From Candidatus Altimarinota bacterium (GTDB lineage: Bacteria > Patescibacteriota > Gracilibacteria > BD1-5 > UBA6164), in assembly GCA_028689115.1 (NCBI GenBank), contig JAQTWV010000001.1, forward strand, positions 845,539 to 909,538: 64,000 bases of DNA, read 5' to 3'. Positions 37,495-50,035 of this stretch are shown piece by piece (the first letter of the stretch is position 1; each line of letters opens with the position of its first letter). The translations under genes were made by a program, and so were the position numbers. Under the pieces are notes generated by a model, which was not told where the DNA came from, did not search any database, and saw only the letters and a program-made list of their open reading frames with translations.

Positions 37495-39777
37495 ATGAAT
37501 CCTCAAGAAATATCATTTGAAAGATACAATTCTATACAAAGAGAAATTTGAAAACATAACGATATTCAAAGTGCTCTTAAAGAAGCTTATGAATTAATAA
37601 AATGAATAACTATAGAAAAAGAAATAAATAAAAAAAATCCTACTAAATACAATCAACTAGAAGAACTAGAAAAAAAATTCATAAAAGAATATATTGATTT
37701 GGAAAATTCTATAAAAGATGCAATTAAAGATGATAGAACTATATCTCAAAAAGAGAGAGAAAAAATTATGTTTGAATTATCTGATATAGTAGATTTGGCA
37801 CAAAAAAACTGAATAAAAGAACATAAAAATCTTTGGAGTAAATTATGAGATGTAAAAAGATCAATTTGATGAACTGAGGAAAAAGTAGATACTAGTAGCG
37901 CCAGAACTGAAGCAATTAAATTAAATGAAAAAAAAGAATTATTAAATAAATATTTTAAAAAAGAAAAATTTTCAGATGTTGAGTTAAAGAAATTATTAAC
38001 TATTTCTAATGAAGAAAGAAAAATTAAATGAGAAAATAAAACATGAAATCTAGCTTGATACGCAGTTAGATGGATTAATTTAGATACAACATCTGCAGAC
38101 ATATTTTCTGAACAAGAAGACGTAATAAGAACAAACCAATTTCAAGATGATATTATAAAAAGAATATGATTAGAAAAATGATACAATGCATCTTGAGATA
38201 TCCATGCCTTTCATCAAAGTTTATGAAACTATATAACAAATGCTCCTATTGTTGAAAGTGCTTTAAAAACAAATAATGTTCAAAATTTATGAAATAAAGC
38301 ATTAAAAAACTATTTATGATATTTGGAAAGTAAATGAGAATTAGCTCCTAAAAATTTAAAAATAAAATTCTGAGAAGAAAAAACTCAAGAAATTTTTAAC
38401 TTTATAAAAAGAAATGAACCTGATAAAATAACTTGAGAAAAATTTTGAACTGATTTTGTGAATAAAGTTTTAGATTTATTTGATAAAGCTTTAAAAGCTT
38501 TAAAAGAAAAAATAGATTGATTATTTACAAAATTAACGACATCTAAAGACTTAAAAGAATTTAAAAGTAATTTAGAAGAAATTAAAAATTATGATAAAGA
38601 AGAAACAGATGCTCTACTTAAAAAATTTGATGAAGAAATTAAAAATAAAGAATCTGAATTAATGAAAAAATTTATATGACCAATTAATGCAAAAATTAAA
38701 AATGAAAATGAAGCTGAAAAAATAGCAAGAGAAATATTAAATAAAATAAAAAATAATTTAGATCCAAAAAAATTATGAGAAGCATTTAGTATAATTGAAA
38801 AATTTAATAAAGATTATGATGCAAAATTTGATAGTAAAAATACAATTCAAGAAACAATTAATGTATCTACATTAGAAAATGAAAGAGATATATTAAAATC
38901 TGTTAGTAATGCAAATATAGCTAAAAAATTAGCAGAAGAAGCAAGAAAAAACTGAAATAAAGAAGAAGCTAAAAAGCAAGAAGAAGAAGCTAAAAAGCAA
39001 GAAAAAGCTTATCATTCACAAATGATAAGAAAAAAATGAATTGAAACTTCTGGTAAAATATTATCTCAAACAAGTGAAAAACAAGCAAGAGATATATGAA
39101 CTTGAAAAATTGATTATAATGAGCATTTAGAAAAAATATTAAGTAAAGATGAAAACTTAAGAAAAGAAATAGATAATTATGAGAAACAAAAAAAAGAAGT
39201 TGAAGAAAAACAAGAAAATAATTCAAATGATAAAAAAGAAGACAATCTTACAACTAAAAATAATACAAATATAGAATCATATTCTTATGACTCAACTTCT
39301 TGAACAGTACAAATAAAATGAGAAAATTGAGTTGAACACATAATTTTAACTCAAGAAGAACAAAAAAAAGTAAAAAATAATCCTGAAATAATAGAAAAAA
39401 TAATTGATTTCTATTCTATATTAAGAGACTTATGATTAAGTGAGTTATGGAAAGAAAAAGAAAAAATTTTTACTGCTATTTCTAATAAAATGTGAATTTG
39501 ATTTAATAATAAATCTAATTACTTAAGTGAAAATGAGATAAAAATATTTTTAAATGCCATTCTGAAATCTGTTTGACAAAAAGAAATTGATAAAACAAAA
39601 GTATTAGTTGAATTTAAAAACATTTTTTCAAATAAAAATGATTTACAAATTATTTGAAATGGTTATAACGATAATTTACTTCAAAAATGAAGTTCAAAAA
39701 TCTCTGAACAATTTTTACAAAAATATGCTAATTGAAAAATATCTTTTGATATCGAATGATTTAGTAAAAATATATAA
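37495..39777 (+). CDS. giant protein A of unknown function with a shared C-terminal module
   Basis: A 760-residue protein with no signal peptide and no membrane helix. It is mostly Lys/Glu/Asn-rich and helical. A coiled coil with a short repeat (KEEAKKQEEEAKKQEK) lies around residues 485-502. An Asn/Lys-rich linker follows, then a C-terminal module of about 160 residues starting near SYSYDSTSGTVQIKG. It includes LTQEEQKKVKNNPEIIEKII, LSENEIKIFLNAILKSVG and NLLQKGSSKISEQF, and ends ISFDIEGFSKNI. The same module ends the next gene. It uses TGA for nearly all glycines, so it is adapted to this genome. No known family recognised. Confidence 0.75.
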
Positions 39778-39782
39778 CAAAT

Positions 39783-42500
39783 ATGCCTGAAATAAACATA
39801 GATAAAATAGTCAATACAAGTATGATTGAAAACCGTGAATGAGAAAAAGATAGCCTTATAAATGATATAAAGAAGGCTAATTTTTTTATTGATTATTTCA
39901 GAAAAAATCAAGATAGTAAATATAGCGAGGTAAAATGATTATATGATAATCTAACTCTAGAATTAAACAATGCAATAAGTGATAATAAAATAGAAACAAA
40001 AAAAGAATTAGAAGGTTTAAAACAATCACTAAATATAGAAACTGAATATGAAAAAATAATAAATATAACTAGAAAATTAGACTCTATATTTGAAAATAAC
40101 ACAAAAATAAGTACTGAGACATTGGAAAGACTATCAAATGATAAACTTGATAATGACTCTAAGAAAAAAATATTTTTTGAAATTAGAAATAACTTACCTT
40201 TAATTTCTCATATAAAAGATCCTGAAATAATTAAGTCTTTTTTTGAATTTTATGAATGAACTAATTTAAGTGAATATTATAAACACTTATCTAATTCCAT
40301 AATTAATTTTCCATTAATAACAAATAGTTATATAAAAAATACATCTCAAATTAATATGAATTTAATTCCAGATGAATATTTTACATATAAAATAGAATGA
40401 CATGATAATATATCTGATATAACAAAAATACTAATTAATTGAAATCAAAATAAAATTGAATCTAGAGTTAGGTCACTTTTTTTAAGATTAAATTGAAATA
40501 TTGGAAATATTAAATTAGTATTAAATGTACTACTAAATAATGAAAAAACAAAGCTAATTATTGAAAATAATCTACCTAAAGAACTTATAGAAAACAAAGA
40601 AACAATTCAATTTTTAAAAGAAAATTGAATTGTAATTCAAAAAGAAAATATAGAAAATCCAAGTAAAAAATTTAATGAATTATCAAAACAAATATTAGAT
40701 TTAAGTATAAATCAAAAAGATTATGATTTATTGGTAAATAAATATATAGATGAACTTGACTCTTTTATTATTAGAAATTGAGAATATGATAAAGAATTAT
40801 TGGCAAAAATAATAAATAAAAATTATTCTAAGTTTGAAAGATTTTCTTGCATAAATTATAACAAAGAAATTGCTAAAGATTTAGTTGAAATTGATCATTC
40901 AATATTTATGAATTTATCAACAGAATTAAGAAAAGATGAAAAGTTAATTAAGGCGTCAATTAAAAATCAAGATGATTATGCATGGGCATATTTTATAAAT
41001 ATAGATTCAATTGATACTCTAATTAATAGTTATAAAATACTTATGGATATCTGAATTAATTCAAATGATATACTAAATTTTCCAAATTTTTCAAATGCAA
41101 TAAAATCATATGCAAATAAAGATAATATATGGGCATATAATTCAAAATGAGATATAGGAGGTTGAAATATATTAAAAGAATTAGAAAATAAATGAAAAAA
41201 TCAAGATAAATTTTTTTCTGAATCATTAAAAGATAATAAATTAATATTAAATGATATAGTTAAAAATGATTTTTTTACTATAATAAATAGTGAAATAAAA
41301 AATGAAACAAAATCTAGAGAATTTTTAGATATATTATATAAAAATAAAGAATTTGATATTGATACATTTAAAGAAAATTATAATAAGCTTTTATTATTAT
41401 GCTCTTGAAATGAAAAAATACTTAAAAATATATTTAATTATTTATTAGATAAACAAGCAGAAGTATATAATAACCCTGAAATTTTAAAAAAGATAACAAA
41501 AAGTAGTATTGAAAATAGTAATTTTGAAATATGAAAAATTAAAATAATATTGAATGAAAATTCTAAAATTAGAGAATTTTTAAATATAGAAATAAATAAT
41601 GATAAAGAAGAAATAAATTTAAATACAAATTTATTAAATTCTAATTTTAAAGATTTTTCAAAAAATCATCCAACAAAAAATAAAAATGAAATTATTAATT
41701 TATATTTATCAGAAATCTGATTATCAGATGATCTTTCATATGATGAATGAAAATTAAGAGAGTTATTATGATGAATACTACTAATTAATTTTGAAAAAAT
41801 AAAATCGAAAACAATTGCTAATCAAAAAGAAACAGCTTATGATTATATTTCATGAAAAATTACAAGAGAAGAATACAATAAAATAATTGACAAGTCATAT
41901 AATGAAAATTTAAAAAAAGAATGACTTCCAAGTAATAAAAACGAGGAAGAAAAAGTTGAAGATAATAAAAACTGAGAGAAAATAAGTAATGTAAATAATA
42001 TAGAAAATTACGATTCTAATTCTTGAATAATTACACTAAACTGAATAAATTGAGTTGAAAAAATAAACCTAAACCAAGAAGAACAAGATCAAATAAAAAA
42101 TAATCCTGAAATAAAAGATAAAATAATTAATTTTTACTCTACTTTAAAGGATTTATGAATAGATAATTTATGGATACATAGAGAAAATATATTTAAAGTT
42201 ATTTCAAATAAAAAATGAATTTGATTTGATGCAAAAACAGATTATCTAGGTGAAAATGAAATAATTATATTTTTAAACTCTATTTTAAAATCAGTTTGAA
42301 TGGAAGAAATTCCTCTTGGTTTTAATTTAGAAAATGTTAAAAATAAATTTATGCAATTAAATAATAAACAAGTTTTATGAAATTGATATTGAGATAATTT
42401 ACTTCAAAAATGAAGTTCAAAAATATCTGAAATCTTTATAAAAAAATATGTTAATTGAAAAATATCTTTTGATAATGAATGATTTAGTAAAAATATATAA
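39783..42500 (+). CDS. giant protein B, C-terminal paralogue of giant protein A
   Basis: A 905-residue protein that starts 5 nt after giant protein A stops. The long helical, Asn/Lys/Ile-rich N-terminal part differs from A. The last ~160 residues match A closely: NLNQEEQDQIKNNPEIKDKI, ISNKKGIGFDAKTDYL, GENEIIIFLNSILKSVG, NLLQKGSSKISEIFIKKY, ISFDNEGFSKNI. There is no signal peptide. It ends at a GC-rich terminator, so A and B form one operon. Function unknown; the large size and duplicated tail could suit a structural or effector role, which is inference. Confidence 0.75.
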
Positions 42501-42530: not shown

Positions 42531-45075
<2,545 letters not shown>

Positions 45076-45140: not shown

Positions 45141-45161
45141 CAAAAGTTCTCTTTTTTTTAA
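45141..45161. repeat. 21-bp direct repeat, left copy
   Basis: CAAAAGTTCTC followed by seven T and AAA. An identical copy in the same orientation lies at 48774-48794, so the two bracket the whole cassette array. The left copy is in the gyrA upstream region; the right copy truncates the SdrD-like pseudogene. Confidence 0.8.
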
Positions 45162-45332
45162 AATCAAAGTTAATATGTCAATATGTGTTAAAATAGAAAT
45201 ATAATCATGAACATTATTAGTAAAAAAAATATATGAATTATTACATTTTTTTTGTAACTTTTCTTTATATTGTGTGTCTAATTATATGAATACCTATCAT
45301 ATGTATTTAAGTTTATTTTTCATATTTTTTTA
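45162..45332. other. gene-free gap with remnants of a cassette gene
   Basis: Minus-strand positions 45283-45322 repeat the start region of the gene at 46655-47122 (MKNKLKYIG), then hit TAG, so this is a 5' remnant of a cassette gene. On the plus strand ATG 45208 opens a short signal-peptide-like frame (MNIISKKNIGIITFFL) that stops after 16 codons at an eight-T run. Removing one T would extend it to about 35 residues. I see no intact gene. Confidence 0.5.
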
Positions 45333-45845
45333 TTAATCCTCACAAGGAGTAGATATTGTTTCTAAATAATCTCAAAAAGCCACATCTGTACCACAGATTC
45401 ATCAATGGGAACTGCAAAGTGAGTTTTCTATTTCTTGAAATTTATATTCTGGATATATATAATACATATTTTTATACCTCTTTCAATAATCCATTGAATA
45501 TAATTTAAACATAAATATATAATTATCATTACTTTTATCTAAAAATACATTGTTTCAATTAGATAATAAATAACAATTTTTTATAGGTTTAATATTTTGA
45601 TTAAATTTTTCATTAAATTCTTTCAAATTTTCAAAACTATATGAGTTTTTATTTAGTCAATTTAAAACAGATTTTACTTTTTCTAATTGTTCAAAATTGT
45701 ATTCATCTATTTTTATATTTTCTAATTCTTCTTTGGTTACATGCTCATTATTTATATAATAATTATAAGAGTATTTTCATAAAATTAATATTATTAATAT
45801 TAATAATATTAATTTTATTATAACTATTTTTATATTTTTTTTCAT
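45333..45845 (-). CDS. cassette protein P1, small exported cysteine-containing protein
   Basis: A 170-residue member of a local family with four copies here. The N-terminal signal or anchor helix is KIVIIKLILLILIILIL. It has the family motifs YNFEQLEKVKSVL, LKEFNEKFNQNIKPIKNCYL and a C-terminal ISTPCED. This copy has extra cysteines near the end (CSSHGGICG). Two cysteines (NCY and PCE) are shared with the paralogues and could pair outside the cell. It follows an SdrD-like fragment by 19 nt. Function unknown. Confidence 0.68.
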
Positions 45846-45864
45846 AATTTATAATTATTATATA

Positions 45865-46140
45865 TTATTTATTTCATCATTTAAATTTAAAATTTCAAAA
45901 ATTCTTATTTATAAGTACTTCTCAATTAGATAAATCAATATTATAATATCAACTATTATTAGTAATTATCCAATTTTGATGAGAAATTTCTAAAATTTTG
46001 TATATTCAAGTTGCTAGTGAGTTGAACTCATAATATCAATCATTATTAGTTAGATTGAATGGTTCTGATTGTTCTTGACAGTTTCAATCATTGTTTAAGT
46101 CAATACAAACTTTCCATCATGCCATTAGTTTTTCTCAAAA
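45865..46140 (-). pseudogene. SdrD-B-like fragment S1
   Basis: The open frame runs from a TAA at 46141 to TAA at 45865; the first ATG is 46125, giving 86 residues. It reads AGWKVCIDLNNDGNCQEQSE, then GYYEFNSLATGIYKILEISH and ends NFGNFKFKGGNK. It is a single SdrD_B-like beta-sandwich unit (calcium-binding DLNNDGNC motif). It matches the C-terminal part of the longer copy at 47721-48790 and begins abruptly at GEK, where that copy reads on from the left. It is therefore a 5'-truncated duplicate. It has no signal peptide and probably is not exported. Confidence 0.7.
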
Positions 46141-46160
46141 TTAACTAAAAAATAAACACA

Positions 46161-46198
46161 AAGAACAAAAGAAATGAAAAATCATTTCTTTTGTTCTT
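46161..46198. terminator. long hairpin terminator inside the cassette array
   Basis: A perfect 16-bp stem AAGAACAAAAGAAATG with an AAAAAT loop, right after the stop of the P2 gene on the minus strand. Confidence 0.8.
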
Positions 46199-46648
46199 CT
46201 AATTTTCTTCACAAGGACGAGATATTATATTAATAAATTTATCATTATTGTAATCAAATCTTCAAGATGAATCTCACATTGGTAGATATGGTAAATCATA
46301 CTTTGGATAGGCATAATATGCTGTTTTATATATAATCATATTTATAAATGATTCTAATTTAAATCAAAATATATATTTTTCATTTCAATTATAATTACTT
46401 ATATGATAACAATTTTTAATAGGTTGTATATTAACATTGTATATTTTATTAAATTCATTTAAATTAAAAAATTCTTTATCTTCTCTTTTTATGTCTTTTA
46501 ATATAATTTTTACTTTTTCTAACTGTCTAAAATTATACATATCTATATACATAGCATATGTTTCTCTAATCATAAATGATATTAAAAATACCAACAATAC
46601 TTTTTTAAATGTTTTACACTTAGTTGTTTTTTTAACTTTTTCTTCCAT
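46199..46648 (-). CDS. cassette protein P2, small exported cysteine-containing protein
   Basis: A 149-residue paralogue of P1, P3 and P4. A basic start (MEEKVKKTTKCKTFKK) is followed by one hydrophobic segment (VLLVFLISFMI), then YNFRQLEKVKIILKDIKRED, FNLNEFNKIYN, IQPIKNCYHISN and YPKYDLPYL. It ends IISRPCEEN. From residue ~25 on it is nearly identical to P3, 6 nt upstream, so this is a recent tandem duplication. Function unknown. Confidence 0.7.
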
Positions 46649-46654
46649 ATTTTT

Positions 46655-47122
46655 TTATTTTTTCTCACAAGGATGAGATATTAAATAATCATAATTAGAT
46701 CTTGCTCAATCAAAAACTCATGCTGAATCATACACTGGTACATATTGTAAATCATATTTAGGATAAGTATAATATCTTTGACCAAATACATATTTATATA
46801 AATTAGAATAATAGTCATCACCATATATAAATGTATATATTAATGATTCTAATTCAAATCAAAATGTATATGGAACTCTATCTTCTGATTTATAATTTCT
46901 TAAATAATAACAGTTTTTTATAGGTTGTATATCCACATTGTATATTTTATTAAATTCATTTAAATTAAAAAATTGTTTATCTTCTCTTTTTAAATCTTTT
47001 AATATAATTTTTACTTTTTCTAACTGTCTAAAATTATACATATCTATATACATAGCATATGATTGAGATAATACAAATATAATTAAAAGAATTATTCATA
47101 TGTATTTAAGTTTATTTTTCAT
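46655..47122 (-). CDS. cassette protein P3, small exported cysteine-containing protein
   Basis: A 155-residue paralogue. The signal peptide is MKNKLKYIGIILLIIFVLSQ, possibly cleaved after SYA. It then has YNFRQLEKVKIILKDLKRED, IQPIKNCYYLRNYKSEDR, YPKYDLQYVPVYDS and LISHPCEKK. Its first ~40 nt and upstream flank recur as a remnant near 45283-45322. Shared cysteines are around residues 71 and 152. Function unknown. Confidence 0.7.
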
Positions 47123-47131
47123 ATTTTTTTA

Positions 47132-47190
47132 TTATTTATTATTACCTTTAATTTTAAAGTTTCAAAAGTTAGATTCTTTATTTCTTGTAA
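47132..47190 (-). pseudogene. SdrD-B-like tail remnant S3
   Basis: The frame SNFGNFKIKGNNK ends in TAA at 47132. It matches the C-terminal tail of S1 (NFGNFKFKGGNK) and S2 (FGNFKIKRK). Only the last ~17 codons survive. It lies immediately upstream of P3, just as S1 precedes P1 and S2 precedes P4. Confidence 0.6.
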
Positions 47191-47254
47191 ATTATTTAAA
47201 TATAACTTATAACTTAATTTTTACTACAACTTTACTGATTATACAAATTATATA

Positions 47255-47701
47255 TTATTTTTTACAATGACTTGAAATTATTCTATGATAATGATCTAAT
47301 GGTGATTTAGGTACATAATTAGATCACATTCATAAATATATAAGTTTATCCGATAAATCATTTTTAGGAAAAGCATAATTATCACTATTATATTTAGTTT
47401 TATAATATATTGAAACTAATTGAAATCAAAATATATATTCTTCATCTCAATTCTCACTAGAAATATAATAACAATTTTTTTTTGGTTTTATATTAAGGTT
47501 ATATTTTTTATTAAATTCAGATAATGTTTGAAATTCATAAAGATCTAATTTTTTTCAATCTAATACATTTTTGACAATTTCAAGTTGTTTGAAATTGTAT
47601 TCATCAATTTTTCTTTTATAAGTTTCACTATTTTGATAAATAAATCATAATAATATTAGTATTAATGTAATTCATATAATTATTTTAGTTTTCTTTTCCA
47701 T
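47255..47701 (-). CDS. cassette protein P4, small exported cysteine-containing protein
   Basis: A 148-residue paralogue, the most diverged of the four. It has a hydrophobic N-terminus (IIIGITLILILLGFIY), YNFKQLEIVKNVLDGKK, FNKKYNLNIKPKKNCYYISS, FPKNDL and an end IISSHCKK, keeping the two shared cysteines. It follows the SdrD-like pseudogene S2 by 19 nt. Function unknown. Confidence 0.68.
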
Positions 47702-47720
47702 AATTTTTAATTATTTATTA

Positions 47721-48790
47721 TTATTTCCTTTTAATTTTAAAGTTTCCAAAATCAATATTAGAAATATGTTTTCCATTTCAAAGACTGATATCATAATATC
47801 AAATATTTGGATTTGTAATAGTCCAATTTTGGTGAGGTATTTCATGTATATGATAATTACCTGACTCTAATGAATCAAATTCATAGTAACCATTGTTATT
47901 TGTTACATTAAATGGTTCAATATTTTCTTCACAATCATTATTATTATTTAAATCTATACATATTTTCCATCATGCCATTGTTTTTTCTCACTCATCTTGT
48001 ACTCAGTCATTATCATCATCTGAGTAAATATATCAAGAGATTTTTCAACTATATGTTTCTGGTTTTTCTGTAAGTGTAAATGTTTGAGTTTGTACCGTCT
48101 CTATTATTTCAAAATATATCAATAGAATAGTAATTTAATGTATATTCTCATAATCAATTAATTTCAATTGTTTTTGTATATGGTAAATATATTAAAGATC
48201 ATGAATTATTATCTAGAGAATAATATGTATTATCAATACCACTTCACCTTTCATTATCTTGTGCATCAAGTTGAATACTAACTGATTCAATAAACGAATT
48301 AGCTTCTCAAGTAGTTGAAATACCAACAAAGTTAATAGAAGTAGTTGGTACTATATTATCTTGAAATGTTGGTGGTAATTGAGTAGTTTTATCATAATTA
48401 CCATCATTATCACTATCTATTTGATAAATTACAGCATCATTTGTATTATTAACAACATTTTGCCAATTAATACTATATTGTTGAACTTCCTTTTTTATAT
48501 CTATATTATTAATATATATTGAACCAGTAGCATTATTATAAAAATCATCAATTGATAAATTATATTTTCATATTTTATTATCATCAAAATCTACTTGTAA
48601 ATTTGTTCTTGTTGAAACAAAAGTATCAATTTGTCATGAACTTGTTTCTATATTTTCTAACAAAGTATAATAATCTCCTCATGCTATCATAAGATCATAG
48701 CTTTCAGATTCTTTTGAAGTAATTTGAAGTGTATATGAAAATTTATTAGGAATATATATATTTTTATTTAACTCAAAAGTTCTCTTTTTT
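47721..48790 (-). pseudogene. SdrD-B/OmpL47-like surface protein, 5'-truncated and frameshifted (S2)
   Basis: Two adjoining frames. The first (~48790-48105) has no start codon: an in-frame TAA lies inside the flanking 21-bp repeat, and the first codons are KKRTFELNKN. It contains an OmpL47-like beta domain (SGIDNTYYSLDNN, LGEYTLNYYSIDIFGNN). At about 48102-48106 one extra A shifts the frame. The second frame carries ETVQTQTFTLTEKPETYSGK and the SdrD_B-like unit (SGYIYSDDDNDGVQDEGEKT, then GYYEFDSLESGNYHIHEIPH), stopping at 47721. The original was likely a large secreted surface protein. Confidence 0.75.
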
Positions 48791-48794
48791 TAAA
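48774..48794. repeat. 21-bp direct repeat, right copy
   Basis: Identical to 45141-45161 in the same orientation, 3,633 bp apart. It coincides with the 5' break point of the SdrD-like pseudogene. Confidence 0.8.
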
Positions 48795-48856: not shown

Positions 48857-50035
48857 ATGAAAGCAATAATATTGGCTGCATGAGAAGGTAGCAGACTTAG
48901 ACCTTTGACAAATACTATACCAAAACCAATGATAAATATTTATGGAAAAAGCATTTTGGAACACAATATAGAAAATATTTATAAATATGTAGTTGAAATA
49001 ACAATCGTAGTAAAATACAAAGCTGAAATAATAGAAAATCATTTTTGAAATAACTATAAATGAGTTCCTATAAATTATCATATGCAAAATGATGAAAAAT
49101 GAACTTGAGCAGCTATAAAATGAATAGAATCAGACTTTGATATAATAATACTTAATTGAGATTCTATATTCAACAAAAATGACTTAAAAACAATTTTAGA
49201 ATACAAATGATACTGAGCACTTGCAAAACAAGTTGCAAGTCCAGAAAAATATGGTATTTTTAAAGTTGATAGTGAAAATAATATAAGAGAAATAATTGAG
49301 AAACCTGAAAATTATGTATGAAATCTAGCAAATCTTTGAGTTTATAAATTTAATCCTCAAATTCTAGAAATTGTTAAACATATACAATTATCAAAAAGAT
49401 GAGAATATGAAATCACAGATGCTATAAATGAATATGTAAACAAATATCCTCTTAAAGCAATTGAAGTAAAAAAAGAATTTATAGATGTGGGTTATCCATG
49501 GGATATACTGAGCGCAAATTCTCATTTTTTAGAAAAACTAAAAGACAATGAAATAAAATGAGACATAGAAAAATGAGTAACTATAAAATGAAATATATAC
49601 CTAGGTAAATGATCAGTTTTAAAAGCTTGAACATATATAGAATGAAATGTATATATTTGAGAAAATACTTCAATATGACCAAATACTTATTTAAGATGAA
49701 ATACTGTAATTTGAAATAATTGTAAGATATGAAATGCTGTTGAAATAAAAAACTCTAGTATTTGAAATAAAACAAATGTAGCACATTTAAGCTACATTTG
49801 AGATAGTGTAATATGAAATAATGTAAATATAGGTTGATGATTCATATCTGCAAATGTAAGACATGATAATAAAAATATAAAAGTTATGATAAACTGAAAA
49901 CTTGTTGATAGTTCTCTTAGAAAACTTGGTATTATTATTTGAGACAATTCAAAAACTTGAATTAAATCATACTCTATGCCTTGAAGAATAATTGAAAATG
50001 ATAGTTTTACAAATCCTTGAGAAATAATAAAATAG
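48857..50035 (+). CDS. bifunctional-type sugar nucleotidyltransferase with left-handed beta-helix
   Basis: A 392-residue protein. The N-terminal nucleotidyltransferase has KAIILAAGEGSRLRPLTNTI then PKPMINIYGKSILEHNIENI, and a metal-binding Asp in IIILNGDSIFN. It also has VGYPWDILSAN. The C-terminal part (residues ~245-370) is a hexapeptide left-handed beta-helix (IGNNCKIGNAVEIKNSSIGN, GGGFISANVRHD), with most turn glycines TGA. The layout is that of GlmU-like or archaeal-type glucose-1-phosphate/UDP-GlcNAc pyrophosphorylases. The exact sugar cannot be told. Confidence 0.87.

What the first reader, a model, noticed from the sequence alone, without database searches (positions are those of the whole stretch)
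45141..48794. Array of duplicated surface-protein cassettes flanked by a 21-bp direct repeat
Minus-strand order is S2-P4, S3 remnant-P3-P2, S1-P1, then a P remnant. S is an SdrD-like unit at the end of a surface protein; P is a small exported cysteine protein. Each S precedes a P. Fragments show repeated duplication and deletion. An identical 21-bp direct repeat brackets the array. This looks like a gene family that generates surface variation by recombination.
Basis: partly seen in the sequence, partly recalled or inferred. Interest (0 to 1): 0.8.

Follow-up and report, generated by a model that had tools for sequence, protein, structure and literature searches.

The report
Swappable exported-protein gene cassettes
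The spot holds a partly decayed set of repeated gene cassettes, each the tail of a large secreted protein plus a small exported protein; comparison across genomes shows that such cassettes recur at four places in this tiny bacterium and have been swapped by recombination, which could let it change its outer surface.

Summary
The array is real. The genome reads TGA as glycine. On the minus strand the order is S1-P1, S3 remnant-P2-P3, a terminator, S2-P4, then a P remnant. All four P frames are intact. S1 lacks its N-terminus and is frameshifted, so this copy is a silent or relic bank. The flanking repeat is 18 bp identical with a T-tract slip, not 21 bp.

The same S-P family sits at three more loci in the genome. 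There S is complete (1148-1807 aa, secreted, SdrD_B C-terminus), followed by P and then usually by 5'-truncated S plus P cassettes. The plan recurs in relatives. At two own loci the S tail and the first 50 codons of P are identical (dS 0), then the P ectodomains differ (dS 0.86): cassettes are exchanged by recombination. Islands at three sites interrupt spacers that are uninterrupted in same-genus species. At the window site three relatives are empty (147 bp) and two carry a diversity-generating retroelement.

P has no known relative or fold. The closest working analogy is Rhs main/orphan cassettes, but here the variable part is a separate exported protein. Function is inferred. New variant of a known kind.

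The parts
48774..48794 (.). right copy of the flanking direct repeat (18 bp identical to the left copy, then one T fewer); its outer side continues into the empty-site sequence TTTTTTTAAAGCAAACTTTAC
45141..45161 (.). left copy of the flanking direct repeat, next to the gyrA -35 region
47721..48789 (-). S1: 5'-truncated C-terminal part of an S gene, broken by a frameshift near 48110 (body frame 48789-48052, SdrD_B tail frame 48134-47724)
47255..47701 (-). P1, 148 aa, small exported protein
47132..47170 (-). S3 remnant: last codons of an S tail (..NFGNFKIKGNNK)
46655..47122 (-). P2, 155 aa, signal-like N-terminus ending QSYA
46199..46648 (-). P3, 149 aa, directly behind P2 with no S between
46160..46199 (-). 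intrinsic terminator hairpin between P3 and S2; the same P-terminator-truncated-S junction exists at C3:447 kb
45865..46140 (-). S2: S tail truncated at GEKLMAGWK
45333..45845 (-). P4, 170 aa; its 3' end carries a weak form of the P-specific dyad (two mismatches)
45297..45335 (-). P remnant: 39 nt identical to the start region of P2

Best explanation
The array is a silent or relic bank of a two-gene cassette family of Gracilibacteria. A working locus has one complete S gene (a large secreted protein with varied bodies and, in this genome, a conserved SdrD_B-type C-terminal domain), then P (a small exported protein) and, usually behind a hairpin or terminator, cassettes made of a 5'-truncated S tail plus another P. 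The S tail and the P N-terminus act as homology arms. Recombination between cassettes, within an array or between loci, replaces the P ectodomain while S stays, so the cell can change the partner exposed with S. Shown: duplication, recurrent 5' truncation, a sharp recombination boundary inside P, near-identical cassettes at two loci of one relative, and islands at three sites that are uninterrupted in related species. Inferred: truncated cassettes are not expressed, P is displayed outside together with S, and the benefit is variation towards prey, host or phage. The window copy entered the gyrA-nucleotidyltransferase spacer as an insertion that probably duplicated about 18-21 bp of its target.
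For: Four S-P loci in the own genome, three with a complete S. Same plan in G001, G003, G021, G024, G031, G032, G033. S tail plus P start identical over 440 nt between C3:357 kb and C3:525 kb, then a sharp drop inside P; first 50 codons dS 0, ectodomain dS 0.86. G033: cassette of the contig-48 array and cassette on contig 16 share 940 nt at 94.6%. S tails conserved (dN/dS 0.11-0.34) while P evolves faster (0.46-0.89). Empty sites: 147-bp spacer in G002, G003, G005; dnaB-dus in G004; cysS-M48 in G002-G005. Terminator between P3 and S2.
Against: No population data: exchange is seen between loci and species, not within one clone. Expression of any copy is unknown. P has no homologue of known function and no fold match, so surface display rests on the N-terminus only. 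The window array has no working S. Some intact P copies in silent positions imply selection, recent exchange or expression that the silent-bank idea does not explain.
Confidence: 0.65

Rival explanations
1. S-P is a polymorphic toxin system: S is a delivered effector, P is the immunity protein, and truncated S plus P are orphan toxin/immunity modules kept for protection and for switching.
For: The plan (complete gene, small gene, 5'-truncated copies each with a small gene) matches Rhs main/orphan loci (PMC3967940). In G001 and G004 the ftsK site that holds an S-P island in the own genome holds an Rhs gene and Rhs orphan fragments. One G033 cassette sits behind Rhs-repeat ORFs.
Against: The S C-terminus is conserved, not variable, and is an SdrD_B domain, not a toxin domain. 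P is one family whatever the S body (subtilase, RCC1, laminin-G, Rhs). P varies more than its S tail. One P is fused to another SdrD_B domain.
Confidence: 0.2
2. Ordinary tandem duplication followed by decay: the array is a relic with no role in variation.
For: S1 is truncated and frameshifted, S3 and the last P are scraps, two P copies at C3:354 and 356 kb share a frameshift.
Against: Four of four P frames in the window are intact at up to 50% synonymous difference; exchange with a sharp boundary is shown elsewhere in the genome; the plan recurs in many species. Compatible with the window copy alone, not with the family.
Confidence: 0.12
3. The array is a degenerate part of the retroelement that occupies the same spacer in G001 and G004, and P varies by that mechanism.
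For: Same spacer; those elements have RVT_1, bAvd, a prepilin-like variable protein, and 20 of 21 template/variable mismatches at template adenines.
Against: No S or P in those elements; no match to the reverse transcriptase in the own genome; P copies differ by indels and at all kinds of sites with dS up to 0.96.
Confidence: 0.03

Closest known systems
Rhs main/orphan toxin-immunity loci (Salmonella rhs, PMC3967940; also CDI)
   Same: A complete large gene plus a small gene, followed by 5'-truncated copies each with its own small gene; shared homology lets recombination bring a distal module behind the complete gene.
   Different: In Rhs the variable part is the C-terminus of the large protein with a matching immunity gene. 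Here the C-terminus of S is conserved and the variable part is the separate exported protein P; no toxin domain is seen.
Silent-cassette antigenic variation (Neisseria pilE/pilS, e.g. PMC3899283)
   Same: Partial gene copies serve as donors; a conserved N-terminal part and a variable distal part with a sharp boundary.
   Different: Donors here usually keep a whole P with start codon and export signal, the cassette includes the tail of the upstream gene, loci are dispersed, and switching in a clone was not observed.
Diversity-generating retroelements
   Same: Occupy the same spacer in two sister species and diversify an exported protein.
   Different: Need a reverse transcriptase and template repeat; none found in the own genome, and P variation is not adenine-limited.
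SdrD_B-domain surface proteins
   Same: S tail matches PF17210 above its cut-off.
   Different: S ends directly behind the domain with no sorting motif seen, and carries subtilase, RCC1 or other bodies.

Membership tests
Rhs/CDI-type polymorphic toxin locus with orphan modules | complete gene followed by 5'-truncated copies, each with a small downstream gene | tested here: met
   own loci at C3:353 and 524 kb and G001, G003, G033
Rhs/CDI-type polymorphic toxin locus with orphan modules | variable toxin domain at the C-terminus of the large protein | tested here: not met
   S tails 60% mean column identity, SdrD_B domain only
Rhs/CDI-type polymorphic toxin locus with orphan modules | small gene gives immunity | not testable with these tools
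   needs expression tests
Silent-cassette variation system | one expressed complete copy plus partial donor copies | tested here: inconclusive
   complete plus partial copies exist; expression unknown; the window locus has no complete copy
Silent-cassette variation system | segmental exchange with sharp boundaries between copies | tested here: met
   (between loci; direction not known)
Silent-cassette variation system | switching observed within a clone | not testable with these tools
   one genome per species is held
Diversity-generating retroelement | reverse transcriptase and adenine-limited variation | tested here: not met
   no match in the own genome (one query only); P differences include indels and all site types
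Transposable element | transposase or integrase gene between the flanking repeats | tested here: not met
   only S, P and antisense frames between 45141 and 48794
Transposable element | target-site duplication | tested here: inconclusive
   18 bp at the window site, but the relatives' empty site is diverged there; no long repeat at the C3:447 and 524 kb islands
SdrD_B domain protein (PF17210) | domain model match above cut-off | tested here: met
   50.6 bits against 29.7 for the S1 tail

The most novel reading that the evidence does not exclude
A separate, lineage-specific diversification system: 5'-truncated S plus P cassettes arise where replication or transcription stops at the hairpin behind P, and the P ectodomain is then exchanged genome-wide. 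This would give ultra-small, probably host-dependent bacteria a way to vary an exported two-part surface complex without a reverse transcriptase, in genomic slots that retroelements and Rhs loci use in sister species.
Probability: 0.3. Interest if true: 0.8.

Novelty: new variant of a known kind. Interest (0 to 1): 0.6.

Why it matters
Gracilibacteria are thought to depend on contact with other microbes (PMC11452946), and how such small genomes keep a varied surface is an open question. An unnamed, lineage-restricted exported protein family that is swapped as cassettes behind large secreted proteins gives a concrete, testable set of genes for that. The same genomic slots hold retroelements, Rhs loci or S-P islands in sister species, which marks them as places to look for interaction genes.

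Tried and rejected
Table 11 reading of the window: TGA is glycine, and code 25 restores the genes. A conserved programmed frameshift in S, suggested by overlapping matches at all loci, was rejected because complete S genes read through in one frame. Weak P matches in G002, G004 and G030 are chance hits to DNA polymerase III alpha, so 14 rather than 17 of the 60 nearest genomes carry P. A type IV pilin fold for P was suspected from the long N-terminal helices, but there is no convincing Pfam, NCBIfam, PADLOC or PDB match and no Foldseek or VIA-align match to the model (mean pLDDT 81). Promoter scanning of the 81% AT region was uninformative. No paper on this family was found.

Full report
What is there. 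The window lies in a 1.23-Mb genome of 4 contigs (G000:C3:845539-909538). TGA is glycine: under code 25 the housekeeping neighbours read through (gyrA, a nucleotidyltransferase, ribosomal proteins). Homologues in named records are Candidatus Gracilibacteria. Between gyrA (minus, starts at 45075) and the divergent nucleotidyltransferase gene (plus, starts at 48857) lie, along the minus strand: flanking repeat, S1, P1, S3 remnant, P2, P3, terminator, S2, P4, P remnant, flanking repeat. P1-P4 are intact; P1-P3 are 38-42% identical to P4 at protein level. S1 is the last third or less of an S gene and changes frame near 48110; S2 starts at GEKLMAGWK; only the last codons of S3 are left.

The flanking repeat. 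It is 18 bp identical, then 8 T against 7 T. The same spacer is 147 bp and uninterrupted in three same-genus species, G002, G003 and G005. The right flank (TTTTTTTAAAGCAAACTTTAC) matches that empty site directly. The inner part of the repeat is diverged from it, so the view that the repeat is a duplicated target is an inference. The insertion appears to leave the promoter regions of both neighbours in place (my reading of the sequence).

The family in this genome. P and S-tail searches find four loci: the window; C3:353-358 kb (complete S of 1807 aa with Peptidase_S8 and DUF5050, then five P and four truncated S); C3:524-530 kb (complete S of 1159 aa with RCC1 repeats, P, a truncated S of 268 aa, P); C3:447-452 kb (S of 1148 aa, P, a broken S tail). 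In these loci S body and tail are in one frame, so the window frameshift is a lesion (or a sequencing error, which was not tested). The window P3-terminator-S2 junction and the C3:447-kb junction are homologous, so the two arrays share history.

The family in relatives. Of the 60 nearest genomes, own included, 14 carry true P genes (17 matches less three chance hits). None of 379 other Patescibacteria genomes drawn across the phylum matched (the first look of that search is a filter and could lose weak relatives). Complete S, P, then truncated S plus P, or arrays of the latter, is seen in G001, G003, G021, G024, G031, G032 and G033. S bodies and even S tails differ between loci, while P stays one family.

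Recombination. The cassette at C3:357 kb and the second cassette at C3:525 kb are identical over 440 nt spanning S tail and P start, then drop sharply inside P. The first 50 codons have dS 0; the next 104 have dS 0.86 and dN 0.40. Selection on the protein does not make synonymous sites jump like this, so the ectodomain was exchanged. In G033 the last cassette seen on contig 48 and the cassette on contig 16, behind Rhs-repeat ORFs, share 940 nt at 94.6%, about 620 nt of it nearly identical, ending at the 3' end of P. The direction of these exchanges is not known.

How truncated copies may arise. At most P/truncated-S junctions a hairpin (an intrinsic terminator or a palindrome over the P stop codon) lies just before the truncated S, and the 5' truncation point differs between loci. 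The dyad CTAATCCYTGYRRGGATTAG occurs in the own genome at five places, all P 3' ends (two of these are P copies with a frameshift upstream; one is the window P4 with two mismatches), and the reversed control pattern has no match. Stalling at the hairpin with a template switch back into S would give this pattern, and so would copying of terminated transcripts; neither is shown. Some junctions (G021, G031, window P1) show no clear hairpin.

Islands and slots. dnaB and dus are neighbours in G004, and cysS and the M48 protease gene in G002-G005, where the own genome has islands; these sit next to A-tracts or a terminator, without a long repeat. At the gyrA site G001 and G004 carry a retroelement with reverse transcriptase, bAvd and 20 of 21 changes at template adenines. 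Next to ftsK, G001 and G004 carry an Rhs gene and Rhs fragments where the own genome has its largest S-P island. The own genome gave no match to the retroelement enzyme.

What P is. P has a hydrophobic N-terminus, which in P2 and P3 looks like a cleavable signal (..QSYA..ETYA) and in others like an anchor; a conserved YNFxQLExxK helix; an NCY..FxLxS..YP core; a variable stretch near residues 141-160; and usually a C-terminal cysteine. One copy is fused to a further SdrD_B domain. There is no convincing family or fold match.

Selection. S tails are under clear constraint (dN/dS 0.11-0.34), P less so (0.46-0.89). Intact P frames at silent positions are best explained by recent exchange or by selection; which one is open.

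Verdict. It works like Rhs main/orphan switching (PMC3967940) or silent-cassette variation, but is not filed as either: the S C-terminus is not a variable toxin, and switching was not observed.

Noticed in passing
L075 2551-6592 (G004:C8) and the matching part of L076 (G001:C17): A diversity-generating retroelement in the same gyrA-nucleotidyltransferase spacer of two sister species: reverse transcriptase, bAvd, prepilin-like variable protein; 20 of 21 template/variable mismatches are at template adenines.
   Followed up: yes
L101, L102, L104 (next to ftsK in G003, G001, G004): Large Rhs-repeat or related secreted proteins followed by small membrane-protein genes and orphan Rhs fragments, at the site where the own genome has the C3:353-358 kb S-P island; a YD-repeat scrap survives there at C3:352560-352763.
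   Followed up: partly
L013 9974-10010, L014 11203-11240, L046, L051, L052, L060: A perfect 36-nt palindrome (AACAATATCTAATCCCTGCAGGGATTAGATATTGTT or close variants) overlaps the stop codon of many P genes in several species; it lacks a T-tract, so it is not a plain terminator and could be a recombination or processing site.
   Followed up: partly
C3:353.8-357 kb (L013 8808-11642): A unit of about 1675 bp (S tail, frameshifted P, S tail) is present twice and is followed by a different P each time, so tandem duplication and P replacement are both recent there.
   Followed up: partly
L013 7867-8784: A 306-aa P variant carries an extra SdrD_B domain fused behind the P domain.
   Followed up: no
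window 37495-42500: Two neighbouring large ORFs (760 and 905 aa under code 25) share similar C-terminal parts (GIGF..NLLQKGSSKISE..GFSKNI), which looks like another tandem paralogue pair.
   Followed up: no
C3:353, 447, 524 and 891 kb: All four S-P loci of the genome lie on the same strand of one contig; not tested against replication direction.
   Followed up: no
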